NCBI RefSeq assembly: GCF_902833045.1
Contig: NZ_CADFDU010000022.1
Coordinates: 19,192-83,191 of the forward strand
Length of the DNA: 64,000 nt
Direction: 5' to 3'
From: Burkholderia sp. BCC0322
GTDB lineage: Bacteria; Pseudomonadota; Gammaproteobacteria; Burkholderiales; Burkholderiaceae
The notes under the pieces were generated by a model. It did no database searches. It was given only the letters and a program-made list of their open reading frames with translations, and was not told the DNA's origin. Position 1 is the stretch's first letter; each line of letters starts with the position of its first letter. A program made the translations under genes and the position numbers. This document shows positions 1,775 through 15,853 of this stretch, piece by piece.

Positions 1775-2586
1775 GCGCCGCCTCCGTCCTGGTGCCAGAA
1801 CGGCATCCCGACGACCGGCGTGCTCGCATGCGCGGTCTCGCGCGCATCCATCGGCCCGGCGAGATATGCGGCGCGGCCGGCCTCGACGCCCTGCGCAAAC
1901 GCGCGCGCCATGATCTCCGGGTGCGTGGCCTGCGACACGGCGGTGTTCAGCAACACGCCGTCGAAACCCCACTCCATCACCTGGCACGCGTGCGACGGCA
2001 CGCCGAGCCCCGCGTCGACGATCAGCGGCACGTCGGGCAGCCGCTCGCGCAGCACGCGCAAGCCGTACGGGTTCACGACGCCCTTGCCCGTGCCGATCGG
2101 CGCGCCCCACGGCATCAGCGCCTCGCAGCCGACATCGAGCAGGCGCCGGCCGATCACCAGATCCTCGGTGCAGTACGGCAGCACCTTGAAACCGTCCTTC
2201 ACCAGTTGCGCGGCGGCCTCGATCAGCCCGACCGGATCCGGCTGCAGCGTGTAGTCGTCGCCGATCAGTTCGAGCTTGATCCAGTCGGTGCCGAAGACCT
2301 CGCGCGCCATATGTGCGGTCGTCACGGCTTCGGCGACGGTCTGGCAGCCGGCCGTGTTCGGCAGCAGCGGCACCGCGTGGCGCTTGAGCAGCTCGAAGAA
2401 GCCGGCTTCGGCCGTGCCGCCCGCCATCTGGCGGCGCAGCGCGACCGTCACCATCCCGGGGCGCGACGCGGCGATCGAATCGGACAGCGACTGCAGCGAC
2501 GGGTAGCGCGACGTGCCGAGCAGCACGCGGCTTGCGAAGGTTTCGCCGTACAGCGTCAGCGCGTCGGCGGAGGTGAGGGACGTCAT
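1771..2586 (-). CDS. thiG: ThiG, thiazole synthase
   Basis: ThiG builds the thiazole ring of thiamine from 1-deoxy-D-xylulose 5-phosphate, dehydroglycine and the thiocarboxylate on ThiS. The protein is 271 aa, the normal length. The Schiff-base lysine is seen in DWIKLELIGD (K104). The LPNTAGC segment (76-81), VLPYCTEDLV, the MPWGAPIGTG loop and the C-terminal IVDAGLG and VLLNTAVSQA motifs are all present. The start at 2586 is the ATG immediately before the first recognisable strand. It lies 38 nt downstream of thiS and overlaps thiE by 4 nt. The direct neighbours ThiS (sulfur carrier) and ThiO (glycine oxidase) supply its sulfur and dehydroglycine. Confidence 0.95.
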   Translation of the reverse strand: MTSLTSADALTLYGETFASRVLLGTSRYPSLQSLSDSIAASRPGMVTVALRRQMAGGTAEAGFFELLKRHAVPLLPNTAGCQTVAEAVTTAHMAREVFGTDWIKLELIGDDYTLQPDPVGLIEAAAQLVKDGFKVLPYCTEDLVIGRRLLDVGCEALMPWGAPIGTGKGVVNPYGLRVLRERLPDVPLIVDAGLGVPSHACQVMEWGFDGVLLNTAVSQATHPEIMARAFAQGVEAGRAAYLAGPMDARETAHASTPVVGMPFWHQDGGGA

Positions 2587-2624
2587 GTCGTTTTCCTGGA
2601 AGAGCGGGGACGAACCGGCGGCGC

Positions 2625-2822
2625 TCAGCCGCCCGCGACCGGGTGCACGACGTCGAGCTTGTCGCCCGCCGCGAGTGCGCGCGCCGCGTGCTGCGTGCGC
2701 GCGACGAAGTTGCCGTTCAGCGCGACCGCATACGGCGGACGCGCGCCGTATGCGGCGAGCGCGTCGGCCACCGTTGCGCCGTCGGGCAACGTCAGGTTCT
2801 GTTGGTTGATCTGGATATCCAT
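2625..2822 (-). CDS. thiS: ThiS, sulfur carrier protein
   Basis: This is a 65-aa ubiquitin-fold protein that carries sulfur as a C-terminal thiocarboxylate and donates it to ThiG. It ends in the diagnostic Gly-Gly (HPVAGG). The body has the TVADALAAYG helix and the VALNGNFV strand expected for ThiS. It starts at the ATG at 2822, 32 nt downstream of the thiO stop, and sits between thiO and thiG, so the cluster order is thiO-thiS-thiG-thiE. No ThiF-like adenylyltransferase is visible in the window, so activation must be done by an enzyme encoded elsewhere. Confidence 0.93.
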   Translation of the reverse strand: MDIQINQQNLTLPDGATVADALAAYGARPPYAVALNGNFVARTQHAARALAAGDKLDVVHPVAGG

Positions 2823-2854
2823 GAGGCTTCGTCGAATTCGGTCGGCAGCGCGCG

Positions 2855-3991
2855 TCAGGCCGGCTGGCGCGCGTCGTTGCGATGATGAAGGAGCGCCGGC
2901 CAGCGCTCGGCGTCGCGCCACGCGGCAAACGCATCGGCATCGCCGAACGCGCCGCCGAGCGCGGCTTCGGCGACCGCGACCGCCGCGTGCGCGACTTCCG
3001 GCGCGATCATGAAGCCGTGCCGGTACAGGCCGTTGACGGCGAGCGTCGATGCGCCGTCCCAGATCACCGCCGGGCGATGATCGGGCAGCGTCGGCCGGCA
3101 CTGCGCGTTGAGTTCGAGGATGCGCGCCTCGCCGAACGCCGGATGCACGGAGAACGCCGCGCTCAGCAGTTCGAGCGCGGAGCGCACGCTGACGGGCGAC
3201 ATGTCCTCGCCCTCCACCTCGGTCGCGCCGATCACATAGAGATCGTCCTGTTTCGGCGCGATGTACAGCGGGTAGCGCGGATGCAGCAGCCGCACGGGCC
3301 GGGTCAGCCCGATGCCGGGCGCGCGCACGCGCGCGACTTCGCCGCGGATGCCGCGCAACGCCGGCAGCGCGGATTTCGCGCCGAGCCCGCGGCAATCGAT
3401 CGTGAAATGCGCGGCGGGCAGGTTCGCATCGTCGATCGTGACGTGCCAGTGCAGGTCGACGCCGCGCTCGACGAGGCCCGCCGCGAGCGCGCGCAGCGCC
3501 TGGCGGTTGTCGAGCTGCCCTTCGTTCGGCAGCAGCAGGCCGCGCGCGAAGCGGCCCGCGAGCACCGGCTCGGCCGCATCGACCTGCGCACCGGCGAGCG
3601 CCACGAAACCGCCGTCGAACAGGTCGGCCGGCGCGTTCGCGCGCACGCGCCGCTCGAACAGCGGCGCCTCCGCACGGTCCGCGTGATGCCAGACGACGAG
3701 CGTGCCGTGATGCTGGAAGAACACGGGTTCGGGCAACTCGGCGAGCCACTGCGGCCAGCGCGCGAGGGAAGCTGCGCCGAGCTCGGTGATCAACAGTTCC
3801 GCGCTCGCCGCTTCCGCGAGCGGCGCGAGCATCGCGGCCGCGACCCACGCGGCCGACTGCTCGCCGTCCGGGCCGCCGCGCTCGTAGAGCGCGACGCGAT
3901 GCCCGTCGCCCGCGAGCCGCCATGCGATCAGGCGGCCGACTAGGCCGCCACCGAGCACCGCGAAATCGGGCCGGGAATCCTGGACGTTCAT
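2855..3991 (-). CDS. thiO: ThiO, glycine oxidase (FAD-dependent)
   Basis: ThiO oxidises glycine to dehydroglycine, the imine used by ThiG. The 378-aa protein opens with a Rossmann dinucleotide motif (FAVLGGGLVGRL, about residues 10-21) followed by an acidic residue closing the second strand (ALYERGG). It continues through the DAO fold to a C-terminal GLYRHGFMIAPEVA segment that binds the FAD. The start at 3991 is chosen because this ATG precedes the Rossmann strand directly and has a GAGGAG Shine-Dalgarno about 8 nt upstream; a longer open frame exists but has no conserved sequence. It is the first structural gene of the thi operon, about 245 nt downstream of the TPP aptamer. Confidence 0.92.
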   Translation of the reverse strand: MNVQDSRPDFAVLGGGLVGRLIAWRLAGDGHRVALYERGGPDGEQSAAWVAAAMLAPLAEAASAELLITELGAASLARWPQWLAELPEPVFFQHHGTLVVWHHADRAEAPLFERRVRANAPADLFDGGFVALAGAQVDAAEPVLAGRFARGLLLPNEGQLDNRQALRALAAGLVERGVDLHWHVTIDDANLPAAHFTIDCRGLGAKSALPALRGIRGEVARVRAPGIGLTRPVRLLHPRYPLYIAPKQDDLYVIGATEVEGEDMSPVSVRSALELLSAAFSVHPAFGEARILELNAQCRPTLPDHRPAVIWDGASTLAVNGLYRHGFMIAPEVAHAAVAVAEAALGGAFGDADAFAAWRDAERWPALLHHRNDARQPA

Positions 3992-10048: not shown

Positions 10049-10615
10049 TCAATCCGCCGCCTCTCCGCCCGCCCGCGCAATCGGCGCCGACACGATCGGC
10101 CGATGCGACACGCCTTCGTGCGACAACCGGCTTTCAAACAGCGTAAGCGCATCGAACCGCAGCGCGACCGTCCGCTTCACCGCACCGCCGTGCGCCGGCT
10201 GTCCGACCGCATCGTGCGGCAGCCGTGCGAGTGTCACGTGCGGGCGGAACGGCCGCCGGTCAGCCGGCACGCCGAGCTCGCGCAGCTTCGCCGACAGCGC
10301 GACATTCAACGCGGCACACGCGGGCTCGGCGGCCAGTTCCGCGACGATCAGCCGCGCGCGCGGCAGGCTCGGCCACCACGCGATCCGTTCGACCGGCATC
10401 AACGGCAGCGCATGCGCGGCCGCGAGCGCCGGCAGGCATGCGGCCAGCTCGTCGCAGCGCACCCGCTCGATCGCGCCAACGAACGCGAGCGTCACATGCA
10501 GTTGCGCGGGCAGCGAACGCCGTGCGCCCCGGGTAACCGGCAACGCGTGCAGCGCGTCGCGCGATGCCGCATCGGGCATCAGCGCGACGAACACGCGCAG
10601 CCGGTCGCCGTTCAT
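10049..10615 (-). CDS. thpR: ThpR, RNA 2',3'-cyclic phosphodiesterase (2H family)
   Basis: This 188-aa member of the 2H phosphoesterase superfamily was formerly called 2'-5' RNA ligase. The two catalytic HxT motifs are H40-V-T-L and H126-V-T-L, each on a hydrophobic strand and spaced as in the family. The N-terminus RVFVALMPDAASRDAL is also typical. The enzyme opens 2',3'-cyclic phosphates on RNA ends. Its ATG at 10615 overlaps the stop of the upstream symporter gene by 4 nt (ATGA), so the two are co-translated, although no functional link is obvious. Confidence 0.9.
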   Translation of the reverse strand: MNGDRLRVFVALMPDAASRDALHALPVTRGARRSLPAQLHVTLAFVGAIERVRCDELAACLPALAAAHALPLMPVERIAWWPSLPRARLIVAELAAEPACAALNVALSAKLRELGVPADRRPFRPHVTLARLPHDAVGQPAHGGAVKRTVALRFDALTLFESRLSHEGVSHRPIVSAPIARAGGEAAD

Positions 10616-12102
10616 GACTCGCGCACCACCGCGCGAGGCACGCTCTCGGCATCGGCCGCGGCCGGACGCTGCGGCAGCGGACCATGCTCGCCCCACACGT
10701 CGGCCGGCAGCACGTTCGCGAGTTCCGGAATCGTGTTGCGCGTGAACACCGGATCGGCAACGCCTGCCGCGCGCTGACGGCGATAGTCGCGCCATGCCGC
10801 GTGCGCGTACTTGCCGAGCGCGAGGATCGCGATCAGGTTGATGATCGCCATCAGCCCCATGCTCGTATCGGCCATCGCCCACACGAGCGGCAATTGCCCG
10901 ACGCTGCCGAACATCACCATCGCGAGCACCGCGACGCGGAACAGCAGCAGCACGCCGCGCCGCTTCGTGATGAACTCGACGTTGCCTTCCGCATACGCGT
11001 AGTTGCCGATCACCGACGAGTACGCGAAGAAGAAGATCGCGAAGGCCATGTAGATGCCGCCCCAGTCGCCGACGTGGCTCGCGATCGAGCGCTGGGTGAG
11101 CGCCGCGCCTTCCATGCCGGTGCCCAGTTCGTACTGGCCCGACAGCAGGATCACGAAGGCGGTGGCGCTGCAGATCACGATCGTGTCGACGAACACGCCG
11201 AGCATCTGGATCAGCCCCTGCACGACCGGATGCCGCGTGCTGGCGGTTGCCGCCGCATTCGGCGCGCTGCCCATGCCGGCCTCGTTCGAGAACAGCCCGC
11301 GCTTCACGCCCATCGCGACTGCCTGGCTGACCGCATAGCCCGTCAGGCCACCCGCCGCCTGCTCGAGACCAAACGCGCTCTTCACGATCAACGCGATCAC
11401 GCCCGGCACCATCGCGATGTGCGTCGCGACCGCGTAGACCGCGAGCGCGAGATAGCCGATCGCCATCAGCGGCACGATCACCTGCGCAACTGCCGCGATC
11501 CGGCGAATCCCTCCGAAGATGATCGGCGCGGTCAGCAGCACGAGCCCGAGACCTACCGTCGCGCGGCTCCAGCCGAACGACGTGTCGAACGCATCGGCGA
11601 TCGCGTTGGCCTGCACCGCGTTGAACACGAAGCCGAACGCGAGGATCAGCGACAGCGAGAACAGCACGCCGAAGCCGCGCGAGCGCAGGCCCGTCTGGAT
11701 GTAGTACGCGGGGCCGCCGCGATAGCTGCCGTCCTGATGCGACACCTTGAAGATCTGCGCGAGCGTCGCCTCGACGAACGCGGACGACATCCCGACGAGC
11801 GCCGTCATCCACATCCAGAAGATCGCGCCCGGGCCGCCGACGGTCAGCGCGACCGCGACGCCGGCGATGTTGCCGGTGCCGACGCGGCTCGCGAGCCCGG
11901 TCGCGAACGCCTGGAACGACGAGATGCTGCCCGGCTCGCCCTTGCTGCCGACCAGCTTGATGCTGAGCAACAGCGCCTTCAGCTGGATCATCCGGAACCG
12001 CACCGTGAACCACGCGCCCACGCCGAGCAGCAGCGCGATCAGCACGTAGTTCCACAGCACGCCGTTGACGGCGTCGATCAGCCCTTGCACGAATGCTTCC
12101 AT
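10612..12102 (-). CDS. Sodium/alanine-glycine symporter, AGCS family
   Basis: This 496-aa inner-membrane protein with about ten to eleven hydrophobic spans belongs to the AGCS (alanine or glycine:cation symporter) family, which imports alanine or glycine with sodium. Diagnostic segments are SSFQAFATGLASRVGTGNIAG, VGGPGAIFWMWMTALVGM, the SYRGGPAYYIQ loop, KRGLFSNEAGMGSAPNAAA and FAYSSVIGNYAYAE. A hydrophilic tail of about 45 residues ends the protein. The gene starts at 12102 and overlaps thpR by 4 nt. Upstream lies the AT-richer accessory island transcribed in the opposite direction. Confidence 0.92.
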   Translation of the reverse strand: MEAFVQGLIDAVNGVLWNYVLIALLLGVGAWFTVRFRMIQLKALLLSIKLVGSKGEPGSISSFQAFATGLASRVGTGNIAGVAVALTVGGPGAIFWMWMTALVGMSSAFVEATLAQIFKVSHQDGSYRGGPAYYIQTGLRSRGFGVLFSLSLILAFGFVFNAVQANAIADAFDTSFGWSRATVGLGLVLLTAPIIFGGIRRIAAVAQVIVPLMAIGYLALAVYAVATHIAMVPGVIALIVKSAFGLEQAAGGLTGYAVSQAVAMGVKRGLFSNEAGMGSAPNAAATASTRHPVVQGLIQMLGVFVDTIVICSATAFVILLSGQYELGTGMEGAALTQRSIASHVGDWGGIYMAFAIFFFAYSSVIGNYAYAEGNVEFITKRRGVLLLFRVAVLAMVMFGSVGQLPLVWAMADTSMGLMAIINLIAILALGKYAHAAWRDYRRQRAAGVADPVFTRNTIPELANVLPADVWGEHGPLPQRPAAADAESVPRAVVRES

Positions 12103-12640
12103 CCAGAGTCCTTGTAAATAGGGTCGGTCATGTGCGGCCGCCGCGGACGCGGCCTGAAAGGCGACATGATATGACAGTTCTCAAGGATCATTACAAAATG
12201 AAAGGATTCGGTGTCATGACAAATCACGGGGCCGATCTCTCCTGATCAGATGCGTCAACACGCCCCCGTCACCTTGGGCAATCTCCCGTGACTGTTTGAC
12301 ACATTGCTCAGTCAACAGGACACGCAGAGAAAAGTGTTTCCGTATTTCGACTTTTCTCGGCGCTTACCCGAACGATATACATCGGTCGCCGATCGGTCGA
12401 CCGACCACGCGTCCTCCGCATCCCCACGTCCCGCGCCGGCGCCCGGCTAATTTCGAGACAAGGGAGCGCGGTCGCATGCTCTCGGGAATCTGTTTTGACT
12501 TCGCTTCCTAGAAGCGTTCCGGATGATTCCCCATGAATACGTGCCGAACGAACTCCTTGCAGATAGCATAAAAAAACATAACCGTCTCATTCTCAGGCAT
12601 GCGAATCAATCATCGAAATCACCACTGCACGGGATATGAA
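12103..12640. other. Gene-free junction with two inverted repeats
   Basis: This 538-bp stretch separates the divergent symporter gene and the bacteriocin locus. I find no convincing gene; a 71-codon frame at 12296-12511 has no conserved features. Base composition falls from the chromosomal high GC to clearly AT-richer DNA. Two inverted repeats stand out: CTGTTTGAC/GTCAACAG (12292-12300 and 12311-12318) and GAGAAAAGT/ACTTTTCTC (12327-12335 and 12350-12358). No perfect LexA box (CTGT-N8-ACAG) is seen. The symporter promoter (leftward) and the bacteriocin promoter (rightward) should both be here. Confidence 0.6.
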
Positions 12641-12859
12641 ATGACGAAGCATAACCATTTGAAACAGACAAGCCACGCCTCTGAAGAAAAACAACAGCCT
12701 TTGATGCGACGACGTCTTCTGGTCGCGTCAACCATGCTTCCGTTTGGCACGTTGCTGAAGCACGCGACGGCCATGGCTCAGAACAACGTCCTCCCACCCA
12801 TCGAGATCACGGCACCGAGGTGCCCGACTTTAATTTTGGTGATTTCGGCATCAAGGTAA
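12641..12859 (+). pseudogene. N-terminal fragment of the colicin M-like bacteriocin (out of frame)
   Basis: This frame (first ATG at 12641; another in-frame ATG at 12599) encodes a basic leader. It holds a MRRRLLVAS stretch, a hydrophobic run and AMAQ (signal-like, possibly twin-arginine or Sec), followed by NNVLPPIEITAP. The IEITAP part resembles a TonB box, which colicin M-type toxins carry near their N-terminus. After codon 12815-12817 the protein-like reading continues in the next frame (EVPDFNFGDFG), so this frame ends early at a TAA at 12857-12859. A single lost base at about 12817 (CCGGAG to CCGAG) would explain the break. It is most simply the true N-terminus of the downstream toxin, disconnected by a frameshift. 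Confidence 0.6.
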
Positions 12860-13773
12860 ACGAAATTCCTGGCGCCAACCCCGGCACCGGAATGCCGGCA
12901 CCTTCAATTTGCTTCAATCAGTATTGCACATCGAATTTCATGTTGCTGTTTGCAAACACGGGCAACATGATCCGTGCCACCGAGATGTTTCTCAAACATC
13001 TCCAAGTCTTCGGGGGCAACGACACAAAATTCTGGCGTAATCAATTAATACGGGTGGGAGGCTTCACTCCTTGGTTGGCCATCGGTGGCTACAAACATTT
13101 TCCCGGTGCCAATCAGTACGGATTCAATTTCGAACCAGGAACATATGCAAACATCACTGCGCTATTTGGTAGCTATATCGGACAATCAAGCAGCATCCCG
13201 CCAACAAGCACATTCGCGTCGTACGGCAATCCGCTGATGTTCGTCGAAGCACTCAATCATTGGATACACGGAGACGGAACTCAACGAACCGTTCATATTG
13301 AATCACTCAACTTGAAGATGAGCATCAGCAATTTCTCGGAAATATCGAGAGCCATTGAAAATCCCGGATACGGCCCCGGCATCTACTCGTTCGACACCGG
13401 TTTCAGCACCAACATCTTCAATCACGGGAGAAAGGATCTCTGGAGCGCCGCAGTCTTTGGGCGAGTATCCGGCAGGGTACGTGGCACGCTTGAAATGCTG
13501 GAGGACGATACATATCGATTCGTCGGTTACTACTCACTCAATCCCGACAAGTTCGATGCAGATCCTTCAAACCGACCGTTTCTGCAGGAGGCTGCGACGA
13601 CGTTCCTGTCCAAGCTCGGCGCCACCTTGGGACATAAGGACTATCAAATCAACTTTTTCGGTGAAAAAAGTCTCACGTTCTCTGGCCAACGACCTGTCAA
13701 GAATGCCGGTACACGCCCCCCGCAGGCGGTCCATAGGCCGTCGTTCGGTGGACTGATGCGACCGACTCGCTAG
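12820..13773 (+). CDS. Colicin M-family bacteriocin (M-type burkhocin-like) body
   Basis: This frame is open from a GTG at 12820 and gives 317 aa. The C-terminal half matches the colicin M lipid II phosphodiesterase domain as I know it. It has a HGDGTQRTVHI segment (150-160) with LKMS after it, GRVSGRVRGTLEM (214-226), an active-site strip D243-K-F245-D246 ending N251-R252, and EAATTFLSKLGATLGHKDYQ with FSGQR at 288-291. In colicin M the strip is D226-K-Y228-D229...H235-R236. So the essential aspartate and the arginine remain, but tyrosine is phenylalanine and histidine is asparagine. Such toxins enter through TonB receptors and cut lipid II in the periplasm. The TonB-box-like segment is in another frame upstream, so uptake by this product is doubtful. 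The DNA is AT-richer than its neighbours, which suggests transfer. Confidence 0.8.
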   Translation: MPDFNFGDFGIKVNEIPGANPGTGMPAPSICFNQYCTSNFMLLFANTGNMIRATEMFLKHLQVFGGNDTKFWRNQLIRVGGFTPWLAIGGYKHFPGANQYGFNFEPGTYANITALFGSYIGQSSSIPPTSTFASYGNPLMFVEALNHWIHGDGTQRTVHIESLNLKMSISNFSEISRAIENPGYGPGIYSFDTGFSTNIFNHGRKDLWSAAVFGRVSGRVRGTLEMLEDDTYRFVGYYSLNPDKFDADPSNRPFLQEAATTFLSKLGATLGHKDYQINFFGEKSLTFSGQRPVKNAGTRPPQAVHRPSFGGLMRPTR

Positions 13774-13849
13774 CAGGCCCCGGGCGGCTCCGGAAATTCG
13801 ACTGCCCGGGTCAACCCCGCATTTTATTCATACCCACAGTGAGCGCCTC

Positions 13850-14233
13850 ATGATTTCCAGAGTCATACGCGGAATCCTCCGGCTAGTTCTCTGGCTAGTT
13901 ATCGCAGCGATTGGCACCTATGCGCTACTGTTCGTCGTCGTTGCGACTTCCCGATATGAGCGGACCGAAGGCACTTGCCCTGACATGTCTCTCGATACGC
14001 TACGAAACAAGGTCCTGCTACGTCTCGAGGAACAAGGAATACCGATGGACAGCATCCGGTTCGACGGTGCGCCGCAGTATCACGCATGGAAACTGGGCAT
14101 GTGGGAATTCCCGCTGCTCATTGAGGAAACTAGATACATCGCGATGATCGACTGCAACGAACAGCTTTCAAGCTATTGGCAAGTCAAAGATCAGCCAGTC
14201 GACAAAACCGGACAAGCTCACGATCGCCGATAA
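13850..14233 (+). CDS. Putative immunity protein for the colicin M-like toxin
   Basis: This 127-aa protein is not recognisable by motif. Residues 7-32 form one strong hydrophobic span (ILRLVLWLVIAAIGTYALL and on), preceded by arginines, so the remaining 95 residues should face the periplasm. Two cysteines there (C43, C102) could form a disulfide. The build is like E. coli Cmi, the colicin M immunity protein: a short N-terminal anchor with a periplasmic domain. It lies 76 nt downstream of the toxin on the same strand in equally AT-rich DNA. Known M-type burkhocins have adjacent inner-membrane immunity proteins of more than one type. Function is inferred from position and topology only. Confidence 0.6.
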   Translation: MISRVIRGILRLVLWLVIAAIGTYALLFVVVATSRYERTEGTCPDMSLDTLRNKVLLRLEEQGIPMDSIRFDGAPQYHAWKLGMWEFPLLIEETRYIAMIDCNEQLSSYWQVKDQPVDKTGQAHDRR

Positions 14234-14237
14234 CTTC

Positions 14238-14270
14238 AAAAAAAAACCGGGCGCCCTTTCGGACGCCCGG
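14238..14270 (-). terminator. Intrinsic terminator of gltB-gltD
   Basis: On the minus strand a 10-bp stem (CCGGGCGTCC/GGGCGCCCGG, one mismatch, GAAA loop) is followed by nine or more T. It lies about 30 nt after the gltD stop. Confidence 0.9.
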
Positions 14271-14301: not shown

Positions 14302-15768
14302 TCAGCGCGGCAGTTCCGAATGCCCCATCAGGTACGCATCGACCGAGCGCGCGCACTGGCGGCCTTCGCGGATCGCCCACACCACGAGCGACTGGCCGCG
14401 GCGCATGTCGCCCGCCGCGAACACCTTGTCGACCGACGTGTAGTACGAACGATCGCCTTCGGTCGCCGCACGCGCATTGCCGCGCGCATCCTTCGCGACA
14501 CCGAATGCCTCAAGCACGGGTGCCGCCGGCTGCGTGAAGCCCATCGCGAGCAGGACGAGGTCGGCCTTCATTTCGAATTCGGAGCCCGGCACCTCCTGCA
14601 TCTTGCCGTCCTTCCACTCGACGCGCACCGCGATCAGCTTCTCGACCTTGCCGTTCTTGCCTTCGAGACGCTTCGTCGCGACTGCCCAGTCGCGCTCGCA
14701 ACCTTCCTCGTGCGACGACGACGTGCGCAGCTTGATCGGCCAGTACGGCCACACGAGCGGCTTGTTTTCCTCTTCCGGCGGCTGCGGCAACAGCTCGAAC
14801 TGCGTGACCTGCTTCGCGCCGTGACGGTTCGACGTGCCGACGCAGTCCGAACCCGTATCGCCGCCGCCGATCACGATCACGTGCTTGCCCTTCGCGAGCA
14901 ACTGGTCGACGAGCTTGTCGCCCGCGTTCACGCGGTTCTGCTGCGGCAGGAAGTCCATCGCGAAATGGACGCCCGCGAGCTCGCGGCCCGGCACCGGCAG
15001 GTCGCGCGGCGTTTCCGAACCGCCGGCGATCACGACCGCATCGAATTCTTCCTTCAGCGTGTCCGGCGAGATGGTTTCCTTCGCGAGACTGCCGATCGAC
15101 TCCGGCAGCGGATCCTTGCCGATGAACACGCTGGTGCGGAACGTCACGCCTTCCGCTTCCATCTGGCGCATGCGGCGGTCGATCAGCCACTTCTCGAGCT
15201 TGAAGTCGGGAATGCCGTAGCGCAGCAGGCCGCCGACACGATCGTTCTTCTCGAACACCGTCACGTCGTGGCCCGCACGCGCGAGCTGCTGCGCCGCGGC
15301 GAGGCCCGCGGGGCCGGAGCCGACGACGGCAACCTTCTTGCCCGTCTTGTGTGCGGCCGGCTCAGGCTTCACCCAGCCTTCCGCCCATGCCTTGTCGATG
15401 ATCGCGTGCTCGATCGACTTGATGCCGACCGGGTCGTCGTTGATCCCGAGCGTGCACGCCGCTTCGCACGGCGCCGGGCAGATGCGGCCCGTGAATTCCG
15501 GGAAGTTGTTGGTCGAGTGCAGGACTTCGATCGCCTGCTGCCAGTCCTGGCGGTAAACGAGATCGTTGAAGTCCGGAATGATGTTGTTGACCGGGCAGCC
15601 GTTGTTGCAGAACGGGATGCCGCAATCCATGCAGCGCGCGCCCTGGACCTTCGCGTCCGCGTCGGTCAGTGCCGCGACGAATTCCTTGTAGTGCTTCACG
15701 CGCGTGAGCGGTACTTCGTACGCCTCGTGGCGGCGTTCGAACTCCAGAAAACCGGTTGCCTTGCCCAT
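14302..15768 (-). CDS. gltD: GltD, glutamate synthase small subunit
   Basis: This is the 488-aa NADPH-oxidising beta subunit of glutamate synthase, which feeds electrons to GltB for making glutamate from glutamine and 2-oxoglutarate. N-terminal cysteines for the iron-sulfur clusters are C46, C49, C54, C58 and C97, C101, C105. The FAD motif [11 protein letters not shown] starts at 150, and a second dinucleotide motif ([12 protein letters not shown]) binds NADPH. The C-terminal [16 protein letters not shown] is the usual FAD-contacting end. The ATG at 15768 begins [10 protein letters not shown], the conserved start of the family. It lies 85 nt downstream of gltB in the same operon. Confidence 0.97.
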
Positions 15769-15853
15769 AAGGTGCTCTTCTGTTCGGTATGTCGGGTGGG
15801 GGAGCCGCGCGCGGCAATCATGCGCGCGCGGCATTCGCTATGTCGTTCGTCGC

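What the first reader, a model, noticed from the sequence alone, without database searches (positions are those of the whole stretch)
12641..14233. Colicin M-like bacteriocin with a putative immunity partner in an AT-rich island
The 317-codon frame at 12820-13773 shows colicin M-type motifs: HGDGTQRTVHI, a GRVSGRVRGTLEM strand pair, a D-K-F-D...N-R active-site strip, and LGATLGHKDYQ with FSGQR. The next gene encodes a small protein with one N-terminal span and a periplasmic domain containing two cysteines, like a Cmi-type immunity protein. The DNA is AT-richer than its flanks and is inserted between housekeeping genes. M-type burkhocins with unusual immunity proteins are known in Burkholderia, so the family is established. 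This pair may be a new, diverged member.
Basis: partly seen in the sequence, partly recalled or inferred. Interest (0 to 1): 0.85.

Follow-up and report, generated by a model that had tools for sequence, protein, structure and literature searches.

The report
Burkhocin M pair with broken toxin
This is a known kind of Burkholderia bacteriocin-and-immunity gene pair at a known chromosomal site, but here the toxin gene is split between two reading frames while the immunity gene next to it is whole, so the strain looks protected but unable to make the weapon.

Summary
The frame at 12820-13773 matches Pfam Colicin_M (E 4e-15) and solved colicin M (E 1e-9), and keeps the strip DKFDADPSNR. The next gene (13850-14233, 127 aa) has one N-terminal span and two cysteines. 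Both lie in the lowest-GC 2-kb stretch of the window (0.526 against 0.648).

The kind is not new. It is a burkhocin M / BmiB pair (Ghequire and De Mot 2015, PMC4661593; [quoted passage not shown] Toxin frames 96-97% identical exist in two relatives.

In this sequence the toxin gene is broken: its signal-peptide end (to 12859) and the rest lie in different frames, while relatives hold one open frame. The immunity gene is whole. In 65 genomes of the genus the site is empty in 27, holds an intact toxin with bmiB in 7, a broken toxin in 2, bmiB without toxin in 12, other cargo in 5, and lacks an intact adjoining symporter in 12. I read the window as a former producer that kept immunity ("cheater"); a sequencing error at the break is not excluded. 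Interest is low to moderate.

The parts
12205..14237 (.). low-GC insert carrying burM and bmiB between the symporter gene and gltD (edges approximate)
   Evidence: similarity to empty sites of other genomes ends near 12204-12208 and resumes near 14237-14240 in most of the 27 empty gaps compared (a few run on to 12210-12226); GC 0.526
12599..12859 (+). N-terminal piece of burM in its own frame (ATG at 12599 or 12641): twin-arginine-type signal sequence, then LPPIEITAPR; leaves the homologous frame near 12.82 kb and stops at 12859
   Evidence: 95% identity over 76 residues to residues 20-95 of the intact B. metallica protein; stop; the twin-arginine label is my reading of MRRRLLVAST, no signal predictor was run
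12820..13773 (+). remaining burM frame: binding/translocation part, ColM catalytic domain (residues 136-291) and C-terminal extension
   Evidence: PF14859 E 4e-15; PDB colicin M E 1e-9; 97% to residues 95-410 of the B. metallica protein
13543..13575 (+). active-site strip PDKFDADPSNR (ColM D226, Y228, D229, H235, R236 align to D, F, D, N, R)
   Evidence: alignment to 3da4; residue roles from PMC4661593
13850..14233 (+). bmiB-type immunity gene, 127 aa, whole; one span (best 19-residue segment starts at residue 13), Cys43 and Cys102
   Evidence: 98% and 97% identical to copies beside intact burM in G036 and G024
10612..12102 (-). left flank: sodium:alanine symporter gene
   Evidence: PF01235 E 8e-156
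14302..15834 (-). right flank: gltD-type glutamate synthase small subunit gene (family matches; gene name inferred)
   Evidence: PF14691 and PF07992; a match in 65 of 65 genomes of the genus

Best explanation
A burkhocin M gene (burM) of the subgroup that sits between the symporter gene and gltD, with its downstream bmiB immunity gene, on a small low-GC insert. In the intact relatives the toxin has a signal peptide for export and a short conserved N-terminal box, is expected to enter related cells through an outer-membrane receptor, and uses its ColM domain to cut lipid II in the periplasm; BmiB, tethered to the inner membrane with its cysteine-bearing domain in the periplasm, protects the producer. 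In the window the toxin reading frame is broken between the exported N-terminus and the rest, so no export-competent toxin should be made, while bmiB is whole. The strain would be an immune non-producer. Shown here: family, site, break, whole bmiB, intact and decayed copies elsewhere. From the 2015 paper: killing by BurM1 and BurM2, need for the motif Asp, protection by the cognate bmi. Inferred: lipid II as target, continued protection in this strain, and that the break is real. The identification alone I hold at about 0.95; the stated confidence is for the whole statement including a real break.
For: Pfam and PDB matches. Same site, orientation, GC drop and BmiB features as the published clade. 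N-terminus and remainder match one intact protein in two frames. 18 burM copies in 17 of 65 genomes, 3 of them (G045, G049, G060) also split over two frames, at points different from the window's. Site survey: 7 intact toxins with bmiB, 2 broken toxins with bmiB, 12 bmiB without burM, of 65. In G054 an 82-bp remnant of the 5' end of burM (84% identical) lies directly before a whole bmiB, so at least one orphan came from loss of the toxin gene. Amino-acid changes on the window's lineage: 11 nonsynonymous to 19 synonymous against 2 to 17 on the two relatives' lineages (counts by hand; Fisher p 0.053), a hint of relaxation that misses 0.05. The same cheater state is described for orphan pmiA in Pseudomonas (PMC5277000, passages).
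Against: The window's own assembly is not held, so the break could not be checked in another read set or strain. The 317-codon frame still looks constrained (dN/dS 0.10-0.14 against its two nearest relatives), as an error or a very young break would give. In 1 of the 2 other broken copies at the site, G049, bmiB is broken too, so immunity is not always kept. 11 of 12 orphan bmiB loci showed no burM remnant at E 1e-3, and those orphans may have arrived alone. The ColM structure model failed (pLDDT 41). Tyr228 and His235 of ColM are Phe and Asn here, and lipid II cleavage by a burkhocin is not reported in the parts I read.
Confidence: 0.6

Rival explanations
1. The break is a sequencing or assembly error, and the strain carries an ordinary working burM-bmiB pair.
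For: Everything on either side of the break is well kept (95% and 97% to the intact relative), dN/dS is low, bmiB is whole, and the window's assembly could not be examined.
Against: 3 of 18 other burM copies are split as well, so real decay is common in this gene; the window lineage has a marginal excess of amino-acid changes.
Confidence: 0.35
2. The two frames are used together by programmed frameshifting, or the GTG at 12820 starts a shorter functional toxin.
For: A GTG opens the second frame, and the frames overlap by 40 bases.
Against: No burM copy of the five closest intact relatives is split at this point; they have one open frame, and split copies are split at different points. A product from 12820 would lack the signal sequence and the N-terminal box.
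Confidence: 0.03
3. The pair is not a bacteriocin system but a housekeeping lipid II phosphatase with an accessory membrane protein.
For: The intact proteins carry their own export signal, unlike other ColM-type bacteriocins (PMC5821083).
Against: Patchy presence (17 of 65 genomes), odd GC, 27 of 65 empty sites, and BurM2 kills Bcc strains and its bmiB protects (PMC4661593).
Confidence: 0.02

Closest known systems
Burkhocin M2 / BmiB of B. ambifaria AMMD and the related pairs of B. cepacia GG4, ATCC 25416 and B. ubonensis Bu (PMC4661593)
   Different: the window's toxin gene is split between two frames; BmiB is 127 aa (published sizes 124 for AMMD, 127-132 in the ATCC 25416 subgroup). I did not align against the AMMD protein itself; subgroup placement is inferred from sizes and from the 58% identity to two other genomes at the same site
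Colicin M / Cmi of E. coli
   Same: ColM catalytic domain (PF14859); membrane-anchored periplasmic immunity protein with two cysteines
   Different: no export signal, and cmi runs opposite to the toxin gene (PMC4661593 and PMC5821083); Tyr228 and His235 differ; BmiB has no detectable sequence relation to Cmi
Orphan pmiA 'cheater' loci in Pseudomonas (PMC5277000)
   Same: toxin remnants beside a kept immunity gene
   Different: PmiA is a four-span protein unrelated in sequence to BmiB; other genus

Membership tests
ColM family (PF14859) | Pfam profile match above the curated cut-off | tested here: met
   56.1 bits against 27, E 4e-15, profile 130-281 of 281
ColM family (PF14859) | signature DXYDX5HR | tested here: not met
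   window has DKFDADPSNR, i.e. DXFDX5NR by alignment; the same departure (Tyr mainly Phe, His absent) is stated to typify burkhocins, so it does not exclude membership in the burkhocin branch
Burkhocin M | cleavable N-terminal secretion signal | tested here: inconclusive
   signal-like sequence present in the N-terminal piece and in intact relatives, in another frame than the catalytic part; no signal predictor was run; best 19-residue hydropathy 1.38
Burkhocin M | C-terminal extension of about 26-36 aa beyond ColM | tested here: met
   26 residues after 291 of 317
Burkhocin M | low-GC stretch, for one clade between glutamate synthase and symporter genes | tested here: met
Burkhocin M | one continuous toxin gene | tested here: not met
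   split between two frames; the window holds a broken copy of the gene
Burkhocin M | kills related strains; lipid II is the target | not testable with these tools
   bench assay
BmiB immunity | about 126 aa, downstream on the same strand, one N-terminal span, two conserved cysteines | tested here: met
   127 aa, one span, Cys43 and Cys102 invariant in 20 of 20 aligned rows; 3 broken or partial copies and 2 with long N-terminal extensions were left out of that alignment
BmiB immunity | protects against the cognate burkhocin | not testable with these tools
   shown for the AMMD pair in PMC4661593, not for this protein
Cmi / YebF (PF13995) | YebF profile match | tested here: not met
   0 Pfam families for the window protein at E up to 1; PF13995 not among the 10 families listed for the 20 members
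Cmi / YebF (PF13995) | Cmi/YebF fold | tested here: inconclusive

The most novel reading that the evidence does not exclude
The gltD-symporter site is a standing turnover site for burkhocin pairs, where toxin genes repeatedly decay and bmiB is often kept, sometimes in tandem (G011, G023, G048), so that many strains of the genus are immune non-producers; the window is one caught soon after the break.
Probability: 0.45. Interest if true: 0.4.

Novelty: new member of a known kind. Interest (0 to 1): 0.22.

Why it matters
It adds a broken copy to a known bacteriocin family and gives a set of natural states at one site (empty, intact toxin with immunity, broken toxin, immunity alone, one deletion scar). 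These make the published idea that orphan immunity genes come from producers that lost their toxin directly testable in Burkholderia. For the family itself it changes nothing.

Tried and rejected

Mobile-element origin: no close relative in phages or plasmids (only colicin M-type proteins below 60% identity, none covering 80%), none confirmed in viral contigs; no flanking direct repeats at the insert edges. Phage-type families: bmiB none, burM one of unknown function.

Wider distribution of BmiB: 0 of 369 genomes of the class at E 1e-6 with the 20-row profile. The tool warns that without a positive control this shows nothing; the sample held few Burkholderia relatives and missed nothing or something, I cannot tell. 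PF14859 in 299 genomes of the family: 15 with a match, in 3 of 25 genera. Terminator and promoter scans gave nothing above shuffles that I would use (3 found against 1.2, and 3 against 2.5).

Rows dropped: G043, G049 and the second G048 copy from the BmiB tree, with N-terminal extensions of G006 and G055 trimmed; G006, G043, G049, G055 and the second G048 copy from alignment A3. The tree needs at least 5 changes of the paired/orphan label, of which well-supported branches force 2; I did not build more on it.

Papers: PMC4661593, parts 1 and 2 of 5 of the text, its figure and table section, and passages. PMC5821083, parts 1 and 2 of 6 and passages. PMC5277000, passages only. PMC8469651, PMC11148199 and the other titles: search listing only. 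I did not find burM remnants beside bmiB described in what I read, but I did not read these papers whole and ran no search aimed at that beyond. The twin-arginine reading and the gene name gltD are mine, from recall.

Full report
What is there. The window holds a frame of 317 codons at 12820-13773 and one of 127 codons at 13850-14233, both on the + strand, between an Na/alanine symporter gene and a gltD-type gene, both on the - strand. GC falls from 0.648 for the window to 0.526 for 12205-14237; of 1240 sampled windows of that length 2 are as low, both overlapping it. Against 27 empty sites of other genomes, similarity on the left mostly ends at 12204-12208 and on the right resumes at 14237-14240, so the insert is about 2.03 kb. 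No flanking repeats were found.

The toxin. The 317-codon frame matches PF14859 (E 4e-15, 56.1 bits, cut-off 27), solved colicin M (E 1e-9), pectocins M1 and M2 and other bacteriocin chains. Of the colicin M residues D226, Y228, D229, H235 and R236, the window has D, F, D, N and R; the 2015 paper states that burkhocins keep the first Asp and the Arg, mainly have Phe for Tyr, and lack the His.

The break. The gene's N-terminal part is in another frame, 12599-12859. That piece is 95% identical over 76 residues to residues 20-95 of an intact B. metallica protein, and the 317-codon frame is 97% identical to residues 95-410 of the same protein. The five closest intact relatives (G007, G009, G012, G024, G036) have one open frame. 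So in this sequence the export signal and N-terminal box are cut off from the catalytic part. It could be a sequencing error: the window's own assembly is not held. The frame's dN/dS against its two nearest relatives is 0.10 and 0.14. Splitting the changes among three lineages by hand gives 11 nonsynonymous to 19 synonymous on the window's and 2 to 17 on the other two together, Fisher p 0.053, a hint and no more.

What it is. [quoted passage not shown] They show killing by BurM1 and BurM2, loss of BurM2 activity on replacing the motif Asp, and protection by the cognate bmi. The window fits in every sequence feature tested except the continuity of the toxin gene. It is therefore a broken member of a known kind.

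How common and in what states. Of 65 genomes of the genus, 17 have a burM match (18 copies, 3 of them split over two frames: G045, G049, G060) and 26 a bmiB match; all 65 have gltD. I fetched the site beside gltD in all 65 (three contigs, G051, G052 and G058, gave under 3 kb) and sorted them by hand: 27 empty, 7 with an open burM frame and bmiB, 2 with split burM and bmiB (in G049 bmiB is split too), 12 with bmiB and no burM (two copies in G011, G023 and G048; partial in G043), 5 with other content, 12 without an intact adjoining symporter. Among the 12 bmiB-only loci one, G054, keeps an 82-bp stretch of the 5' end of burM at 84% directly before bmiB; the other 11 show none. So one orphan plainly came from deletion of the toxin gene; for the rest this is not shown.

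Mechanism. Shown here: family, site, break, whole immunity gene. From the paper: killing and immunity of the type pair. Inferred: in intact relatives, export, entry into kin cells, lipid II cleavage, and blocking by BmiB in the periplasm; in this strain, no working toxin and kept immunity. The same state with toxin remnants is described for pmiA in Pseudomonas, where the authors speak of possible cheaters (PMC5277000, passages). Split copies are split at different points, which speaks against programmed frameshifting.

Outside the genus. In 299 genomes of the family, 15 have PF14859, in 3 of 25 genera. Two are from other genera: G138, whose protein is 45% identical to the window frame over 248 residues and has a BmiB-like partner (probability 98.3, E 2.2e-14), and G299, 40% over 285 residues, with a three-span partner unrelated to BmiB. 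Both have His where Burkholderia copies have Asn in the strip.

Verdict. Interest 0.22.

Noticed in passing
L088 (G046) and L086 (G045), site between symporter gene and gltD: A low-GC insert (0.55-0.56) at the same site carries a 168-175 aa protein; the G046 one has a weak ricin-B-lectin match (E 9e-5, under the cut-off).
   Followed up: partly
L059 (G001), L066 (G020), L073 (G062), same site: Frames of about 318-363 aa fill the site; the G020 protein matches PhyH (phytanoyl-CoA dioxygenase, E 3.5e-8), and G001 shows a similar frame. Similar frames also lie in G050 and G006 beside bmiB.
   Followed up: partly
L091 (G009), original coordinates 2533-3420: An IS3-type transposase gene (rve, HTH_21) lies between the symporter gene and an intact burM.
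   Followed up: partly
L089 (G011), L104 (G023), L101 (G048): Two bmiB genes in tandem at the site without burM, the copies belonging to different BmiB branches in G011 and G023.
   Followed up: partly
L077 (G006), bmiB near 2660 of the oriented locus: The BmiB protein carries a run of repeated LAE units after its first cysteine and lacks the second cysteine.
   Followed up: no
L125 (G299) 913-2320 and L128 (G138) 832-2365: Burkhocin-like ColM proteins in two other genera of the family, one with a three-span partner and one with a BmiB-like partner; both have DxFxADxSHR with His.
   Followed up: partly
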